64,000 nt of DNA. Source: Bacillus safensis FO-36b (GTDB taxonomy: Bacteria > Bacillota > Bacilli > Bacillales > Bacillaceae). Position 1 is the first letter of the stretch. Each line of letters opens with the position of its first letter. The notes under the pieces were generated by a model. That model searched no databases and was not told where the DNA came from. It saw nothing but the letters and a program-made list of their open reading frames with translations. Below, in pieces: positions 49,098-61,940 of this stretch. The stretch is taken from contig NZ_ASJD01000004.1 of assembly GCF_000691165.1 (NCBI RefSeq), positions 62,001-126,000 of the forward strand, in the 5' to 3' direction. The translations under genes and the position numbers were made by a program.

Positions 49098-49935
49098 ACG
49101 TAATATCTTCTAAAATAAGTGCTTTTTCCTGTTTTGAAATAAATGCTCGCTCTGTAAAGACGCGGTATTCGTTTTCTCTTGTTTTATCTAAAATGGCTTT
49201 ATAAAAGTAGGCTGCTGCTTTCACCGGTATTCGTGAATAGAGCGGGAATTCATGAAGATGGTCAAAAAACTCCTCGTAGTATGCCTCTGCCTCAAAGGCA
49301 ATGTACTCCCAGACGTGCTGGAAGGCTTGATTCACAATCCCTTCCTGCAATTCTTGCTCTGTGTACCCGAATTGATCCATCACTTGCTTTGGCAAATAAA
49401 TGCGGTCTCTTTCAGCCTGATCTTCGCCGATATCTCGAAGGATGTTGGTTAGCTGCATAGCAATCCCTAACGAAATGGCTGCTTCTTTTAGCTGCTCTTT
49501 TTTACGCGGTGCAATAATGGGAAGGAGCATAAGCCCAACTGTACTAGCAACATGATAGGAATAGATGAGCAGTTCATCCAACGTTTCGTATCGCTGCTGC
49601 TCTAAATCCATCTCCTGTCCTTGGAGCAGGTCACGGAACGGGGCTTCATCCATCCGAAACTCTTGAAATGTATGCTCTAGCGCCACCCATATTGGATCAT
49701 TCCGGTCTACCTCACCTTGTAAAAATCGATCAAACGTCTCCCGAAAGGATGCAAGGTCCTCTTTTGGCGAAGGGGATTCATCTACAATGTCATCTGCTCT
49801 ACGGCAAAAGGAATATACGGCCCAGACGGCCTGTCTTTTCTTTTTAGGTAGCATGGAAAAGGCCCGGTAAAACGTTTTTGAATGGGTTTGAATGGTTTCC
49901 TCACACACTTTTAATGCTGTTTGTACATCAACCAC
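49096..49935 (-). CDS. crtM: Squalene/phytoene synthase family, probable dehydrosqualene synthase CrtM (YisP orthologue)
   Basis: 279 residues. Both Asp-rich magnesium sites are intact: DDIVD at 48-52 and DIGED at 168-172 followed by AERDRIYLP. It should couple two farnesyl diphosphates head to head. By position it is the counterpart of B. subtilis YisP, which I recall as a farnesyl diphosphate phosphatase with a degraded Asp site. Here two CrtN-type genes lie just upstream in one operon, so a C30 carotenoid role is favoured. GTG start at 49935 overlaps the desaturase stop by 8 bases. Confidence 0.85.
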   Translation of the reverse strand: MVDVQTALKVCEETIQTHSKTFYRAFSMLPKKKRQAVWAVYSFCRRADDIVDESPSPKEDLASFRETFDRFLQGEVDRNDPIWVALEHTFQEFRMDEAPFRDLLQGQEMDLEQQRYETLDELLIYSYHVASTVGLMLLPIIAPRKKEQLKEAAISLGIAMQLTNILRDIGEDQAERDRIYLPKQVMDQFGYTEQELQEGIVNQAFQHVWEYIAFEAEAYYEEFFDHLHEFPLYSRIPVKAAAYFYKAILDKTRENEYRVFTERAFISKQEKALILEDIT

Positions 49936-51403
49936 TTAGCTTCACTTCCTTTCTATCATTCAAATCTTTTAGTAGTACAGAAGCCATAAGCTTCGCACTT
50001 TGCATCACGATCGGCACCCCGCCACCCGGATGGATGGAAGCACCTGCCGCATAAAGATTATCTGTCTCACTGACCTTCACTTGCGGGCGGAAGACACCTG
50101 ATTGAAACAAATTAGGCGCAAGTCCAAAGCTGCCGCCTTCAAACAATCCTTCTCGCAAGGAATCATTTGGTGTTCTGACCTTTTTCCAGACAATCGACTC
50201 TCGCAATCTCGGAAAGCCTCTTTTCTCAAGGACATCCACCATCTTCTCGACAAACTCTGTCTCCTCTTCCCAGTTGATATGATCTCCTGAAGGAACGGGA
50301 ACGAGCATGTATAGAACACTGCAGCCTTCTGGGGCAAGAGATGGATCAATGATCGATGGATTAAATGTATAAAACGACGGGTCTTGAGGAATCGTTTTCG
50401 TTTGAAAAACTTCTTTCATATGCTGATCAAAGTGTTCTCCCATAAAAAATTGATGAACAGGTGCTTCATGATACATCTTGTTTAACCCGAGATACACCAT
50501 CACACAGCCAGAGGACGGCACGTATTTCCGGCGATCTTGTTCGTCTAAACCAAGCTGCTTTAACGCAGCTGGATAATCTCCATTGATCACAAATGCATCA
50601 GCGGTTTCATATTCATCATTTACTTTAGCTTTGACTGCCCGTTTCCCCTCAAACACCAATTGCGTGACTTCTTCATTTTTTCTTACATGCACACCCATTT
50701 TGATGAGCTGCCCTTCCAATATATCTACTAAACTCGCATATCCGCCTTTTAAATAGTAGATTCCATGCGCGTGCTCACTATAGGACACAAGCGAATAAAT
50801 AGCCGATGCTTCATACGGGTTTCCCCCAACATAGAGGGTTTGAAGTGCGTATGCATCTCGCAGGCGTTCGTCTGAGAAATATTTTTTCAGAGCACTTTGT
50901 ACCGTTCGATACGCCTTTAATTTCATTAAAATCTTCATATTCGCTTTTGTAAAAAATGTACGTTTTTCGTGAAATGATTTTTCTAGAAAGGCTTGCTGCC
51001 CTTCTTGAAACCGGTCTGTCATTTCTTCCATAAACCTCAGGAACCCTTGATCTTCCTTTGGAAATACACGTCTGATTTCATCTAGCTGACGAAGTGCATC
51101 AGAGTATTTCGTATAGGAGGTTCCATCTTGATATTGAATTGTGTACAGCGGATCAAGCTGCAGCAGATCAAGAGATGAATCGTCAATTCCTACCTCATGT
51201 AAAATGCCTTTTAACATGTCAGGAAGTAGGACAATGGTCGGACCTTCATCTACTTTATATCCTTTCTCACGTACAAAAGCAAGTCTCCCGCCAAGCCGTT
51301 CATTTTTTTCGACAAGGGTGACATCATGTCCCGCTTTTTTTAAATAAAGCGCTGAGATCATTCCGCCAATACCGCCGCCTGCAATTAATATATGTTTCTT
51401 CAT
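49928..51403 (-). CDS. crtN: CrtN-type carotenoid desaturase/oxidase
   Basis: 491 residues: FAD loop HILIAGGGIGGMISALYL with EKNERLGGRL, VDEGPTIVLLPDML as in S. aureus CrtN, YALQTLYVGGNPYEASAIYSL, and the C-terminal YAAGASIHPGGGVPIVMQSAKL (the FAD end motif). Probably dehydrosqualene desaturase. The ATG overlaps the preceding gene's stop (ATGA). Exact assignment between CrtN and the CrtNb/CrtP oxidase type cannot be made by eye. Confidence 0.8.
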   Translation of the reverse strand: MKKHILIAGGGIGGMISALYLKKAGHDVTLVEKNERLGGRLAFVREKGYKVDEGPTIVLLPDMLKGILHEVGIDDSSLDLLQLDPLYTIQYQDGTSYTKYSDALRQLDEIRRVFPKEDQGFLRFMEEMTDRFQEGQQAFLEKSFHEKRTFFTKANMKILMKLKAYRTVQSALKKYFSDERLRDAYALQTLYVGGNPYEASAIYSLVSYSEHAHGIYYLKGGYASLVDILEGQLIKMGVHVRKNEEVTQLVFEGKRAVKAKVNDEYETADAFVINGDYPAALKQLGLDEQDRRKYVPSSGCVMVYLGLNKMYHEAPVHQFFMGEHFDQHMKEVFQTKTIPQDPSFYTFNPSIIDPSLAPEGCSVLYMLVPVPSGDHINWEEETEFVEKMVDVLEKRGFPRLRESIVWKKVRTPNDSLREGLFEGGSFGLAPNLFQSGVFRPQVKVSETDNLYAAGASIHPGGGVPIVMQSAKLMASVLLKDLNDRKEVKLSG

Positions 51404-52917
51404 GAGGCGCTCCCCTTTTCTTGATGCGGCATTGTTTTGTGTGAATGTTTCTCTTTTTTAAGAATGGCATTTGTCGTGATACGTGCTGATTCTAAAATGG
51501 TTGGCAGTCCGCTTCCTGGATGTGTTCCTCCTCCAACGAGCCAGCAGTGCTTTAATTCATCAAATTCATTGTGCGGCCTTAGGACCATCATCTGCGTCAG
51601 CTGGTGGCCGAGGTTAAATGTAGCTCCTTCATATACGTAAAGGTCTTCCTCCCATTGCTTCGGTGTGATCATCCGCTCGACTTCTATATGCTGTCTCACA
51701 TTCTGAAAGCCTGTTTTCCGCTCCAATGTATCCAGCACAAGCTCTCTAAATTCATCTTGATGCGCCTCCCAATCAATACCGCTTTGGTTATTGGCAACTG
51801 GAGCCAGCACATAAAGAGCTGATTTTCCTTTTGGAGCAAGTGAGTCATCGGTTACACTTGCATTTTGAATATAAATAGACGGGTCATCTGGCAGCTCATA
51901 TGTCTTCGTAATGCCTTTGACAAATCTAGCATAATCATCGGAAAAAACGATGGTATGATGCGGCTCATCATATATGGTATCCAGTCCTAAATAAAGCATA
52001 AAGGTAGAGCAAGAGAATTTTTTCTTTTTTAATTTCTTCTCGCTGTATTTCTTTAAGAGTCCTGGCTCGACAAGCTTTGTCATCACATGTGCAAAGTCTC
52101 CATTGACGACAACCTCATCTGCTTGTATTTCTTCCCCAGATTCTAAACGAATGCCTTTTACTTTCCTTCCCTCCGTGAGCAGCTTTTCGACGCCAGCTGA
52201 CAGATGAATCTCTGCTCCAGCTTCAAGCGCGGCCTTTGCCATCGCTTCTGACAGCTGATTGACACCGCCCTTCGGATGAAATACACCTGTGTCATGTTCC
52301 ATAAACGAAAGGATCGAGAACGCACCAGGGCATTCCCACGGGGACATTCCTAAGTACTTTGATTGAAATGTAAAAGCATATTTCACTGATTCATTCGAAA
52401 AATAGTCTGACAGCACATCATACAAACTTTTATTTAGTGAAAGCTGTGGAAGTGCTTTGATCACCTTCAGGCGAAGGTAATGATGAAAGCGGTCCATTTT
52501 ACTTTGTAGAATTGGTGTCAAACGATCCATTTTGCGCTTTGTATCCTTCATAAATCTTAGATACCCTTCGCCCTCACCAGGTGCAAAGGCTTCTAATCGT
52601 TTGTACATTTCATCGCGATCCCGAATCATATCGAGCTGATTGTCTTGAAATATTAATCTATACATCTCTTTTAATTCAATCACATCAATATAGTCATAAA
52701 GATTTTTACCAGCAAAGGTGAACAGCTCCTCTGCAATATAAATCATGCTGAGAAAGGTAGGACCTGTATCAAACGTGAAATCACCAAGTTGAAACTTAGC
52801 GTTACGCCCGCCAACAAAGGGCTGTTTTTCGTATACATGAACATCATGTCCTTTGCTTTGAAGCATCATAGCTGCTGCAAGGCCCCCTGGTCCCGCTCCG
52901 ATCACAATGATTTTCAT
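51400..52917 (-). CDS. Second CrtN-type carotenoid desaturase/oxidase
   Basis: 505 residues: IIVIGAGPGGLAAAMMLQS, YEKQPFVGGRN, FDTGPTFLSM, TFQSKYLGMSPWECPGAFSIL, and C-terminal VGGGTHPGSGLPTILESARI. Homologous to its neighbour but clearly diverged, so the pair likely divides desaturation and terminal oxidation of a C30 backbone (CrtN with CrtNb/CrtNc-like). First gene of the crt operon; GGAGG 10 bases before the ATG and its own promoter just upstream. Confidence 0.78.
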   Translation of the reverse strand: MKIIVIGAGPGGLAAAMMLQSKGHDVHVYEKQPFVGGRNAKFQLGDFTFDTGPTFLSMIYIAEELFTFAGKNLYDYIDVIELKEMYRLIFQDNQLDMIRDRDEMYKRLEAFAPGEGEGYLRFMKDTKRKMDRLTPILQSKMDRFHHYLRLKVIKALPQLSLNKSLYDVLSDYFSNESVKYAFTFQSKYLGMSPWECPGAFSILSFMEHDTGVFHPKGGVNQLSEAMAKAALEAGAEIHLSAGVEKLLTEGRKVKGIRLESGEEIQADEVVVNGDFAHVMTKLVEPGLLKKYSEKKLKKKKFSCSTFMLYLGLDTIYDEPHHTIVFSDDYARFVKGITKTYELPDDPSIYIQNASVTDDSLAPKGKSALYVLAPVANNQSGIDWEAHQDEFRELVLDTLERKTGFQNVRQHIEVERMITPKQWEEDLYVYEGATFNLGHQLTQMMVLRPHNEFDELKHCWLVGGGTHPGSGLPTILESARITTNAILKKEKHSHKTMPHQEKGSAS

Positions 52918-56087: not shown

Positions 56088-56993
56088 TTATTTGACGTGA
56101 TTTGTCAGCGTTCCAATCGGTTCAATTGTGATGTCAATTCGATCTCCAGAAGCTAAAAACTTAGGCGGTTCAAAGCCCTTCCCTACCCCAGAAGGTGTAC
56201 CTGTTGCAATGATGTCACCCGCTTCTAATGTCATCCCTTTTGAAAGAGTGGAGACAATGTCTTCAATTGTGAAGATCATTAATTCCGTACTGGCAGACTG
56301 ACGAACCTCTCCGTTTACCTTTGTTTCCACATGGAGCGCACCATGATCCTCGATCATTGACTTATGAACGATATAAGGTCCTATCGGGCAGGTTGTATCT
56401 AAGCTTTTGCCAATGAAAAATTGTTTATGTTTTTTCTGCAAATCTCTTGCCGTCACATCATTTAAAATGGTGTAACCGAATATATAATCTTGGACCTCTT
56501 CAGGAGCAATGTTTTTCCCTGATTTGCCCATCACAATGGCAAGCTCTCCTTCATAATCCAATTCACTTGTCACACCTTCATGAAGAAGAATGTCCGCTTC
56601 GTGTCCAATGACAGAAGTAGGTGCCTTTGTAAAAATCATCACGTCTTTAGGAATATCCGCCGCACTTCCCATCTCCATGACATGGTCTTGATAATTCTTT
56701 CCGACACACATGATGTTTTTAGACGGCTTTGGAATCGGCGCATGGAGTTTCACGTCCGAAAGCGGATATACATAAGAACCGCGGTCTTCTTCTTTTTTCT
56801 CAGCCCAATCAAGAAGCTGTCCTACATGTTCAACAAACTTGTCCCCCATTTTGATACACTCAGATAAAGAGTTTGGCAGTGTCTCAAGCTCAAATAATTT
56901 GGCTTCTGCCTTTTTGACGTCCATCACCCATTCATCATCAATGACTACCCCAATAAACATGCTGCTATGTATCTCACCTGTAAAAAACTTCAT
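56088..56993 (-). CDS. yisK: YisK, fumarylacetoacetate-hydrolase-family enzyme
   Basis: 301 residues. Metal-binding FAH core: DYEGELAIVMGKSGKNI with the acidic ligands, GYTILNDVTARDLQKKHKQF, and GTPSGVGKGFEP. Family members hydrolyse or decarboxylate 2-oxo acids; B. subtilis YisK has been linked to oxaloacetate decarboxylation and cell-shape effects (from memory). ATG at 56993 with GAGGGGAAG just upstream. Confidence 0.9.
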   Translation of the reverse strand: MKFFTGEIHSSMFIGVVIDDEWVMDVKKAEAKLFELETLPNSLSECIKMGDKFVEHVGQLLDWAEKKEEDRGSYVYPLSDVKLHAPIPKPSKNIMCVGKNYQDHVMEMGSAADIPKDVMIFTKAPTSVIGHEADILLHEGVTSELDYEGELAIVMGKSGKNIAPEEVQDYIFGYTILNDVTARDLQKKHKQFFIGKSLDTTCPIGPYIVHKSMIEDHGALHVETKVNGEVRQSASTELMIFTIEDIVSTLSKGMTLEAGDIIATGTPSGVGKGFEPPKFLASGDRIDITIEPIGTLTNHVK

Positions 56994-57119: not shown

Positions 57120-57530
57120 TTAGCGGAAACGGCGGTACTCCCACATGTTCCCTTGATCCCATTTACGCTCAACATTTCCTCTATTTCTGGAACGATGCGA
57201 TTTCTTTCCACATCTTCGGCAAGAGCGGCTGCGTTTATGGTGATGAGAACGTTTAGATCGATGGCTGCGGCGCGACTTTCGGCTCTTCTTATTGTGGGAT
57301 CTGTGCTTGCTGCGATGTGACTTGCGGCAGCTCTTCTTCTGGTGCGATCTGCATTTGCTGCGATGTGACTTGCGGCTGCTCTTCTTATGATGAGATCTGC
57401 ATTTGCTGCGGTGTGACTTGCGGCAGCTCTTCTTATGGTGCGATCTGCATTTGCTGCGATGTGACTTGCGGCAGCTCTTCTTTTTGCTTCTGTAAGATTT
57501 TTTGCTTTTATATGACTTTTTACTCTTCAT
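57120..57530 (-). CDS. 3' part of a split CotG-like spore coat gene
   Basis: 136 codons from an internal ATG at 57530. Almost wholly Lys/Ser/Arg/His/Cys: four repeats of a 16-residue unit CRKSHRSKCRSHHKKS (48 bases each, 57300-57480 region), a His/Arg tract, then a non-repetitive tail ending WDQGNMWEYRRFR, which resembles the end of B. subtilis CotG. No ribosome site precedes this ATG, so it is probably the displaced second half of the gene whose first half is 57556-57924. Deleting one 139-bp period joins them into a single 221-residue frame. If real, the coat protein is broken in this strain. Confidence 0.65.
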   Translation of the reverse strand: MKSKKSYKSKKSYRSKKKSCRKSHRSKCRSHHKKSCRKSHRSKCRSHHKKSSRKSHRSKCRSHQKKSCRKSHRSKHRSHNKKSRKSRRSHRSKRSHHHKRSRSCRRCGKKSHRSRNRGNVERKWDQGNMWEYRRFR

Positions 57531-57736
57531 GCTTTTCTTCGAACGATAGCTTTTCTTAGAGCGATAACTTTTCTTTGAACGATAGCTTCTGTAGCTTATG
57601 TGACTTTTTCGGTTCGCTCTTTTTGCTTCTGTAAGATTTTTTGCTTTTATATGACTTTTTACTCTTCATGCTTTTCTTCGAACGATAGCTTTTCTTAGAG
57701 CGATAACTTTTCTTTGAACGATAGCTTCTGTAGCTT
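57479..57736. repeat. Perfect 119-bp direct repeat inside the CotG-like gene (139-bp period)
   Basis: 57479-57597 and 57618-57736 are identical over 119 bases, separated by 20 bases. The 139-base period is not a multiple of three, so the second copy is read in another frame and the coding sequence is split. The unit itself encodes KKSYRSKKS-type repeats. Confidence 0.92.
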
Positions 57737-57924
57737 TTTTTACTGCGGCGTGATTTACGGCGTCCACCACCGCCAAAGAACCAATGACCGCGACTTGAAT
57801 GACGAGAACGAGCTGACTTATGCGAACGTCTCGATTCTGGTTCACGATCTAAGTGATGATCACGTCCCTCACTTCGAAGTGAAGCTACTGCATGTTCAAT
57901 GTGTGAATGATCAAATGTACTCAC
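57556..57924 (-). CDS. 5' part of a split CotG-like spore coat gene
   Basis: 122 codons from a GTG at 57924, with GGGAGGGG 8 bases upstream. The first 25 residues (MSTFDHSHIEHAVASLRSEG, then LDREP) resemble the N-terminus of B. subtilis CotG, followed by a Gly patch (FFGGGG) and KKSYRS repeats. It then leaves frame in the duplicated segment and ends in an untypical KLQKLSFKEKLSL tail. CotG is a heavily phosphorylated outer-coat protein; the divergent neighbour is a CotH-type kinase. Together with 57120-57530 it is best seen as one disrupted gene. Confidence 0.7.
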   Translation of the reverse strand: MSTFDHSHIEHAVASLRSEGRDHHLDREPESRRSHKSARSRHSSRGHWFFGGGGRRKSRRSKKSYRSYRSKKSYRSKKSYRSKKSMKSKKSYKSKKSYRSKKSEPKKSHKLQKLSFKEKLSL

Positions 57925-58129: not shown

Positions 58130-59224
58130 ATGAACACAGAACCTTTAAAACAAATTGATATGTGGATTCATCCAAAGGACCTGATTGAATTAAAAAAAGA
58201 CATTTGGAACGATGAACCTGTTGAAGCTATTCTAAAAACCGGCCAAACCAAATCACATATTTATGCTTCATACCGCGGATCGCACATTAGAAAGCTTAAG
58301 AAAAAGTCCTATCAAATTGAATACCGAAAGCCAAAACAAAGACAAGGCGAATCCATCTTTCATTTAAATGCAGAGTACAATGATCCGTCGTTTATCCGAA
58401 ACAGGCTGTCCTTTTATTTCTTTGAGCAGATGGGGGTGCATAGCCCAGCCGCTTCTCATGTGTTTCTCACCATAAATGGAAGAAAGGAAGGGATTTATTT
58501 GAAAATAGAATCTGTCGATGAGTTCTTTCTTCAAAAACGGCAGCTTTCAGGAGGCGGCATTTATTATGCGGTTGATGATGACGCGAACTTCTCCCTTTTG
58601 AGTTCTTTTGATAAAAAACCAAAAAAGCACCTTCTTCTCGGATATGAGAAAAAAACGGGGACTTCTCAACATGATCAGCAGCTGAGCGAATTTATTTACT
58701 TTCTCAACACAGCGAAAGATGACACTTTTGCAGAAAAAATTGAACAATACCTAGATGTGACACAATATTTCCGCTGGCTCATCGGTGTGGTATGCACACA
58801 AAACTTTGATGGTTTTGTTCATAACTACGCCCTTTATGTAAATGAACAAGGGAGGTTTCAAGTACTTCCTTGGGATTATGATGCAACATGGGGTCGTGAC
58901 ATTCATGGAGAAGAAATGCCGTTTGATTATATCCCAGTAAACGGGTTTAATACATTAACTGCTAGATTACTAGATATCCCTTCGTTTAAAAGAGCCTATT
59001 ACACACTTTTCCAGCATGTACTCGATACACATTTTGTAGAAGACCGGCTCTGCCCAATCATAGAGAAATGGCATGAATCGATTGAGGATCGAATTGGAGA
59101 TGATCCATATACGAAAGGCCGAAAAGACATCTTGCAGTCTGAAAGAGACTTAATCCGGCAATATATCAACAAAAGACGACGTTATTTACAGACTGAGATC
59201 AAAAAAGAGATTTTTGGTACGTAA
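58130..59224 (+). CDS. yisJ: YisJ, CotH-type spore coat protein kinase
   Basis: 364 residues with the atypical kinase fold of CotH: SYRGSHIRKLKKKSYQIEY (glycine loop/Lys region, about 50-68), NAEYNDPSFIRNRL, GIYLKIESVDEFF, then the catalytic region NFDGFVHNYALY (Asp at 227) and LPWDYDATWGRD (Asp at 249 and 251). In B. subtilis CotH phosphorylates CotB and CotG on serines. GGAGG lies 11 bases before the ATG. Divergent from a CotG-like gene, which suggests kinase and substrate are encoded together. All expected acidic residues look intact. Confidence 0.88.
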   Translation: MNTEPLKQIDMWIHPKDLIELKKDIWNDEPVEAILKTGQTKSHIYASYRGSHIRKLKKKSYQIEYRKPKQRQGESIFHLNAEYNDPSFIRNRLSFYFFEQMGVHSPAASHVFLTINGRKEGIYLKIESVDEFFLQKRQLSGGGIYYAVDDDANFSLLSSFDKKPKKHLLLGYEKKTGTSQHDQQLSEFIYFLNTAKDDTFAEKIEQYLDVTQYFRWLIGVVCTQNFDGFVHNYALYVNEQGRFQVLPWDYDATWGRDIHGEEMPFDYIPVNGFNTLTARLLDIPSFKRAYYTLFQHVLDTHFVEDRLCPIIEKWHESIEDRIGDDPYTKGRKDILQSERDLIRQYINKRRRYLQTEIKKEIFGT

Positions 59225-61640: not shown

Positions 61641-61940
61641 TTATTTTTTTCTGCGCTGTCTCGATTTTTTCGTTTTGACCAGCTTGCTTGCCGGCTGTTT
61701 CCGAATCCATTTGATGTACGAAGCAAGCTTTTCATCCTGCCTCAGTGCATCAATTGTATTCAAACGTGCGGCAAGCTCCTGGTTTGTAAAGAGGGCATGT
61801 ACTTGTTTATGACAAGGGATGCATAGGAAGGCAGTCGGTAAAAAAGCCCCGCCCTCTTCTCTTGGCGTTAAGTGATGTTCTGTGAGCAGGACATCTTGTC
61901 TTCCGCACATCTCACATAATCCAATTGTTTGCTTTGCCAC
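61641..61940 (-). CDS. yisB: YisB, HNH nuclease-family small protein
   Basis: 99 residues: CEMCGRQDVLLTEHHLTPREEGG then CIPCHKQVHALF give the two Cys pairs and His residues of an HNH/McrA-type zinc finger nuclease; the C-terminus is very basic (KTKKSRQRRKK), fit for nucleic-acid binding. GTG start at 61940 behind GAGGTGA. It follows sbcC by 19 bases and is probably in the addBA-sbcDC transcript, pointing to DNA repair. Confidence 0.82.
   Translation of the reverse strand: MAKQTIGLCEMCGRQDVLLTEHHLTPREEGGAFLPTAFLCIPCHKQVHALFTNQELAARLNTIDALRQDEKLASYIKWIRKQPASKLVKTKKSRQRRKK

What the first reader, a model, noticed from the sequence alone, without database searches (positions are those of the whole stretch)
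57120..57924. CotG-like spore coat gene split by a 119-bp perfect direct repeat that shifts the frame
Two identical 119-bp copies (57479-57597 and 57618-57736) lie 139 bp apart. The first frame (57556-57924) has the CotG-like N-terminus and a ribosome site; the second (57120-57530) has the CotG-like C-terminus and none. Removing exactly 139 bp gives one frame of 222 codons (221 residues) from 57924 to 57120. So a tandem duplication broke the gene, or reversible repeat copy-number change switches it on and off (a phase-variable spore surface), or the assembly duplicated a repeat.
Basis: partly seen in the sequence, partly recalled or inferred. Interest (0 to 1): 0.72.

Follow-up and report, generated by a model that had tools for sequence, protein, structure and literature searches.

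The report
Spore coat gene broken by duplication
In one Bacillus pumilus-group genome, the gene for the spore coat protein CotG has a stretch copied inside itself out of step, so the protein is cut in half; it looks like a recent, ordinary loss-of-function change (or possibly an assembly error) rather than an evolved on/off switch.

Summary
The repeat is in the assembly: two identical 119-bp copies, 139 bp apart, inside a cotG-like gene divergent from an intact cotH. The upstream frame has the CotG/ExsB N-terminal domain and a Shine-Dalgarno site; the downstream frame has the CotG C-terminus and no such site. All 16 B. pumilus-group relatives examined have one intact frame. In 40 of the 43 other genomes of the genus, 278 of 278 exact internal repeats (20 bp or more) of the CotG-like gene are spaced by multiples of three; the 139-bp pair is the only one off phase. 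The 20 bp between the copies is native in 12 of 16 relatives, so the second copy is the extra one, and a short piece that follows in relatives is missing: not a plain tandem duplication. Best reading: a recent duplication-plus-loss knocked out the genome's only detected cotG while leaving cotH intact. An assembly error cannot be excluded without reads. Nothing found supports an evolved phase-variable switch. Low to moderate interest.

The parts
57556..57924 (-). cotG upstream fragment: 122 aa from GTG; 109 native residues, then 13 out-of-frame residues
   Evidence: NF047410 CotG_ExsB_Nterm 32.1 bits against cut-off 28; GGAGG 10 nt before GTG; no Pfam hit
57120..57530 (-). cotG downstream fragment: 136-aa open frame with the K/R/S/H-rich array and the conserved C-terminus; not expected to be translated efficiently
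   Evidence: C-terminus resembles those of 16 of 16 relatives; no ribosome site; no Pfam or NCBIfam hit
57618..57736 (-). repeat copy A (first in gene order, in the reading frame)
57479..57597 (-). repeat copy B, the extra copy; read in another frame
   Evidence: the 12 relatives with the spacer go from it into the array without a second copy
57598..57617 (-). 20-bp spacer = native sequence that follows copy A in relatives (SEPKKS block)
   Evidence: block present in 12 of 16 relatives, exact in G018
57282..57473 (-). in-phase 48-bp repeat array (SCRKSHRSKxRSHHKK-like units)
   Evidence: family D1
58130..59224 (+). cotH, intact CotH kinase-family gene, divergent from cotG; the only CotH match in the genome
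   Evidence: Pfam CotH 4.7e-86; one match in own genome
57057..57099 (.). terminator-like inverted repeat after cotG, conserved in relatives
   Evidence: read directly; alignment of 17 sequences
56088..56993 (-). FAA-hydrolase family gene downstream of cotG, intact (context)
   Evidence: Pfam PF01557 1.8e-72

Best explanation
The gene is the B. pumilus-group cotG, encoding a highly basic modular spore coat protein that CotH kinase is expected to phosphorylate. Shown: a 119-bp stretch of its first repeat block occurs a second time, 139 bp downstream and out of phase, and the frame ends inside the second copy. Inferred: a recent duplication combined with a small local loss (slippage, unequal exchange or template switching in a naturally repetitive gene) knocked the gene out. 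The cell would make a CotG of about 122 residues that keeps the N-terminus and first basic block but loses the main array and the C-terminus, while CotH stays intact. By analogy with B. subtilis cotG mutants, spores would still form and germinate but would have an altered outer coat, immature CotB and perhaps heat sensitivity. Because the copies are perfect and close together, the change may collapse spontaneously at some rate, but as an accident of mutation and not as an evolved switch.
For: Exact repeat and frame break. 16 of 16 pumilus-group relatives have one uninterrupted frame of 166-219 aa with GTG start and a near-identical C-terminus. Exact internal repeats of 20 bp or more in other CotG-like genes: 27 of 27 in phase in the 16 (they lie in 6 genes; 10 have none), 242 of 242 in 22 more genomes, 9 of 9 in two more: 278 of 278 in 40 genomes. 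The five other repeats in the window's gene are in phase too. Spacer native in 12 of 16 relatives. Recent: copies have no differences, and ribosome site, upstream region, terminator-like repeat and C-terminus show no obvious decay. The new junction's 20-mer occurs in 1 of 44 genomes of the genus, this one. No second CotG_ExsB N-terminus in the genome. Literature: a B. subtilis cotG frame mutant keeps CotH, germinates like wild type and lacks mature CotB (PMC4130616); CotG's N and C termini are held responsible for CotB interaction, and spores lacking CotG are called heat-sensitive (PMC9765600); cotG deletion spores lack outer-coat striations (PMC7821199).
Against: No reads and no second strain of the species were available; the genome is a 37-contig draft. 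The absence of a short native piece at the new junction is also what a local misassembly of a longer in-frame array could leave. The truncated product has not been shown to be non-functional; five second CotG/ExsB-type genes of the genus have open frames of only 96-133 aa.
Confidence: 0.67

Rival explanations
1. Assembly or sequencing artefact: the true gene has one uninterrupted frame (perhaps a longer in-frame array) and the assembler joined contig ends or dropped part of the array.
For: Draft of 37 contigs; repeat-rich gene; sole off-phase repeat among 41 loci compared, own included; a short native piece is missing exactly at the new junction, and what follows the spacer in G018 resembles, over about 9 bases, what precedes copy A, so a longer true sequence there is conceivable.
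Against: Assemblers usually collapse perfect repeats rather than invent them (general knowledge); in the assembly as it stands the bases before copy A and before copy B do not match; no N in the window; not at a contig end (about 119 kb into a 306-kb contig).
Confidence: 0.23
2. Reversible phase variation: gain and loss of the repeat unit switches cotG off and on within a population, varying the spore surface.
For: Perfect 119-bp direct repeats 139 bp apart, spacing not a multiple of three, are the right anatomy; reversible duplications inside pneumococcal capsule genes are described (PMC4243769 passages).
Against: No second allele seen (none could be looked for); 0 of 40 other genomes has an off-phase internal repeat, so no lineage-wide switch; loss of the unit would give an allele without the spacer block that 12 of 16 relatives keep, though 4 of 16 lack it; one literature search for phase variation, tandem repeat, spore coat and Bacillus found 0 papers in the held library.
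Confidence: 0.05
3. The gene still yields a two-part or full-length CotG, by translational coupling or by ribosomal frameshifting in the 107-bp overlap of the two open frames.
For: The frames overlap (57665-57559), and only 25 nt lie between the stop of the first and the ATG of the second.
Against: No ribosome site at the second ATG; 0 of 16 relatives uses two frames. Recoding signals were not searched for.
Confidence: 0.05

Closest known systems
CotG / ExsB-like modular spore coat proteins (B. subtilis CotG; NCBIfam NF047410)
   Same: N-terminal domain above cut-off, divergent neighbour of cotH, basic tandem repeats, C-terminus shared with relatives
   Different: The frame is broken here; 16 of 16 pumilus-group relatives are unbroken. 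This gene lies beside gerP and an FAA-hydrolase gene, and no cotB-sized frame lies between cotH and gerP, whereas cotB neighbours cotH in B. subtilis (PMC4130616 passage).
B. subtilis cotG frame mutant of Saggese et al. 2014 (PMC4130616)
   Same: cotG cut by a frame change with cotH left intact
   Different: Engineered one-base insertion with a stop 21 bp after the start; here a natural internal repeat whose second copy begins 327 bp after the start
Spontaneous duplications inside pneumococcal capsule genes (Waite et al. 2001, 2003; seen only as cited in PMC4022640 and PMC4243769)
   Same: Duplication inside an open frame that inactivates a surface-structure gene
   Different: There reversibility was described; here no second allele is known, and the event is not a plain tandem duplication

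Membership tests
CotG/ExsB-like spore coat protein | CotG_ExsB N-terminal domain | tested here: met
   32.1 bits against cut-off 28; only one match in the genome
CotG/ExsB-like spore coat protein | Gene divergent from a cotH | tested here: met
   CotH at 58130-59224 on the other strand
CotG/ExsB-like spore coat protein | Central positively charged tandem repeats | tested here: met
   48-bp array and KKSYRS units, but divided between two frames
CotG/ExsB-like spore coat protein | N-terminus, repeats and C-terminus in one frame | tested here: not met
   stop at 57558-57556; C-terminus in another frame. Hence a broken member, not an intact one
CotG/ExsB-like spore coat protein | Phosphorylated by CotH and assembled in the coat | not testable with these tools
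   needs spores
Repeat-mediated phase-variable gene | Direct repeat whose copy number changes the reading frame | tested here: met
   119 bp, spacing 139, remainder 1
Repeat-mediated phase-variable gene | Two or more alleles in one population | not testable with these tools
   one assembly; no reads; no other strain of the species found in the collections searched
Repeat-mediated phase-variable gene | Off-phase repeat retained in related lineages | tested here: not met
   0 of 40 other genomes; junction 20-mer in 1 of 44, the own genome

The most novel reading that the evidence does not exclude
The repeat pair flips at high frequency, so cultures contain spores with and without a full-length CotG: an accidental or selected contingency locus for spore-surface permeability in the B. 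pumilus group.
Probability: 0.06. Interest if true: 0.65.

Novelty: new member of a known kind. Interest (0 to 1): 0.22.

Why it matters
If the allele is real, it is a natural counterpart of the laboratory cotG frame mutant with cotH intact, and would let one ask how much an environmental isolate depends on CotG. The comparison also shows how strictly frame is kept in these variable arrays (278 of 278 repeats in phase in 40 genomes). If it is an artefact, it is a reminder that CotG arrays need long reads.

Tried and rejected
Chance repeat: rejected. Second cotG as backup: none found. Decaying neighbourhood: cotH, two gerPA/gerPF-family genes, gerPB, gerPC and gerPE each match their Pfam families; gerPD was not checked. 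A defect of the neighbouring gene with an SbcC-type domain that might favour duplications: its frame runs past the window edge and is 1138 codons from stop to stop, so it looks intact. Simple 139-bp tandem duplication: rejected as a full account, because the spacer is native and a short following piece is missing. A promoter for cotH behind cotG, as in B. subtilis: the region is conserved but I could not assign one. The junction 20-mer in viral contigs gave 0, as expected. Literature searches for phase variation of Bacillus spore coats (0 papers) and for cotG with frameshift (1 paper, PMC3533761; the passages concern frameshifts in other genes) gave nothing on this event. PMC3682946 (passages) says that cotG homologues missed in earlier annotation were identified in B. 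pumilus SAFR-032 and ATCC 7061. A comparison of synonymous and other codon changes in the two ends was made but is too small to use; several relatives differ by more amino-acid-changing than silent codons at the C-terminus.

Rows dropped: the 16 relatives are those whose flanking DNA aligns at 79% or more; the 27 others were not used for the single-frame count. One search missed three relatives (L013, L016, L018) through its filter, and one search recovered them. One search took the 30 loci given (48 matches listed) and dropped L057 (contig end); in each it took the longest basic-residue-rich frame, without testing that it holds the domain match. One search added L054 (G029), L059 (G006) and a second gene of G016 (1 of 1 in phase, not counted in the 278); L056 (G007) gave a frame on the wrong strand and L057 (G026) none, so both are left out. 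G008 has no match. Hence 40 of 43 other genomes.

Full report
What was checked. The window is part of contig C4 of a 37-contig, 3.73-Mb draft genome. The nearest named relatives found are B. pumilus-group species: B. safensis S-11 at 93.4% and B. australimaris at 92.6% over about 11 kb; the unnamed G043 is at 94.1% over about 3.7 kb. Minus-strand bases 57924-57120 hold two open frames. The first (GTG 57924 to the stop at 57556) has GGAGG 10 nt upstream and carries the CotG_ExsB_Nterm domain (32.1 bits, cut-off 28). The second (57530-57120) holds the in-phase 48-bp array and the C-terminus and has no ribosome site. The divergent gene is an intact cotH (Pfam CotH, 4.7e-86), the only CotH match in the genome. 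No second CotG_ExsB N-terminus was found in the genome.

The repeat. Two identical 119-bp copies lie 139 bp apart and match no further on either side. It is the only exact direct repeat of 40 bp or more with spacing of 10-1499 bp in the window, and the window has no N. 139 leaves remainder 1, so the second copy is read in another frame, and a stop follows at 57558.

Relatives. I chose the 16 other genomes of the genus in which the surrounding DNA aligns at 79% or more (from, in which 36 of 44 genomes, own included, had any match). In 16 of 16 cotG is one frame of 166-219 aa with a GTG start and a near-identical C-terminus; GGAGG stands before the start in 15 of 16 (G018 has a weaker site). Exact internal repeats of 20 bp or more number 27 in these genes (in 6 of the 16; ten have none), all spaced by multiples of three. 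The window's gene has six, five in phase, and the 139-bp pair is the only one that is not. I then took the 30 CotG-like loci given; 29 gave a usable frame and 246 of 246 repeats were in phase. Seven of those frames are genes already counted, with four repeats, which leaves 242 in 22 further genomes. Two more genomes added 9 of 9. Total: 278 of 278 in 40 of the 43 other genomes. Long perfect repeats are ordinary here (up to 162 bp, L092); off-phase ones are not. Length varies freely while frame is kept, which fits selection for an intact frame. One limit: in the 16 relatives repeats were counted only between start and stop, in the others also 400 bp beyond the stop.

Which copy is new, and what happened. 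In 12 of 16 relatives the SEPKKS block follows the first repeat block. It is the 20-bp spacer of the window (20 of 20 identical in G018), and in all 12 it continues directly into the array. In the window it continues into copy B. So copy A plus spacer is the native order and copy B is extra. A short part of the array that follows the spacer in relatives is absent here. What follows the spacer in G018 resembles, over about 9 bases, what precedes copy A in the window, a similarity that could have seeded the exchange. The event is thus a duplication combined with a local loss, in one or two steps; the data do not tell which. I did not build the deleted version.

Age. The copies are identical. The upstream region, ribosome site, C-terminus and terminator-like repeat show no obvious decay against relatives. 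The change is recent or an artefact. The junction 20-mer occurs in 1 of 44 genus genomes, this one, and in 0 viral contigs.

Function, by analogy. In B. subtilis a cotG mutant made by a one-base change keeps CotH, germinates and resists lysozyme like wild type, but CotB stays immature (PMC4130616, first of two parts of the results read). CotG's two ends are held responsible for interaction with CotB, the repeats acting as spacer (PMC9765600, introduction and discussion read); [quoted passage not shown] Spores without CotG lack outer-coat striations (PMC7821199, abstract and passages). The window's allele should resemble these, with the extra uncertainty that a truncated basic N-terminal piece may still be made. 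In B. subtilis the cotH promoter lies beyond cotG, so cotG is inside the untranslated cotH leader (PMC4130616, passage). If that holds here, the leader is merely longer; I could not assign the promoter.

Switch or not. The anatomy would allow loss of the repeat unit, and reversible duplications inside capsule genes are reported in pneumococci (PMC4243769 and PMC4022640 passages; the original Waite papers were not read). But there is no second allele, no relative with the feature, and I found no species-mates in the collections. I rate an evolved switch at about 5%. An assembly error is the main rival (about 23%, raised by 0.01 on re-checking because of the 9-base similarity). Against it: assemblers tend to collapse perfect repeats, and the place lies far inside a 306-kb contig. 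For it: the draft state, the repeat-rich gene and the missing piece at the junction.

Verdict. Observation confirmed. Interpretation partly supported: a broken CotG gene, with the event more complex than a tandem duplication and the phase-variation reading unsupported.

Noticed in passing
genus-wide CotG-like loci, e.g. L092, L096, L059: CotG-like genes of the genus carry long perfect in-phase repeats (162 bp at spacing 39; 109 bp at spacing 33; 116 bp at spacing 36), a strict keep-the-frame pattern in variable arrays.
   Followed up: partly
L008 (G030): cotG with an expanded in-phase run of an 18-bp unit (YKSKKS repeated) and without the SEPKKS block.
   Followed up: no
G005 and G033, about 1.18 and 1.27 Mb, against 3.64 and 3.68 Mb: These two genomes have a second, weaker CotH-family gene (312-aa open frame) besides the main cotH; the window's genome has a single CotH match.
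   Followed up: no
G040 C12, G031 C21, G002 C1:2815318, G025 C41, G016 C11: Second, shorter CotG_ExsB_Nterm genes (open frames 96-133 aa) in five genomes of the genus.
   Followed up: no
49928-52917: Two adjacent FAD-dependent amine-oxidase-family genes (Pfam PF01593) that look like carotenoid-type desaturases (this reading is recalled, not tested).
   Followed up: no
61641-61940: Small HNH-type protein (99 aa, PF01844 just above its cut-off) between the last gerP gene and the SbcC-type gene.
   Followed up: no
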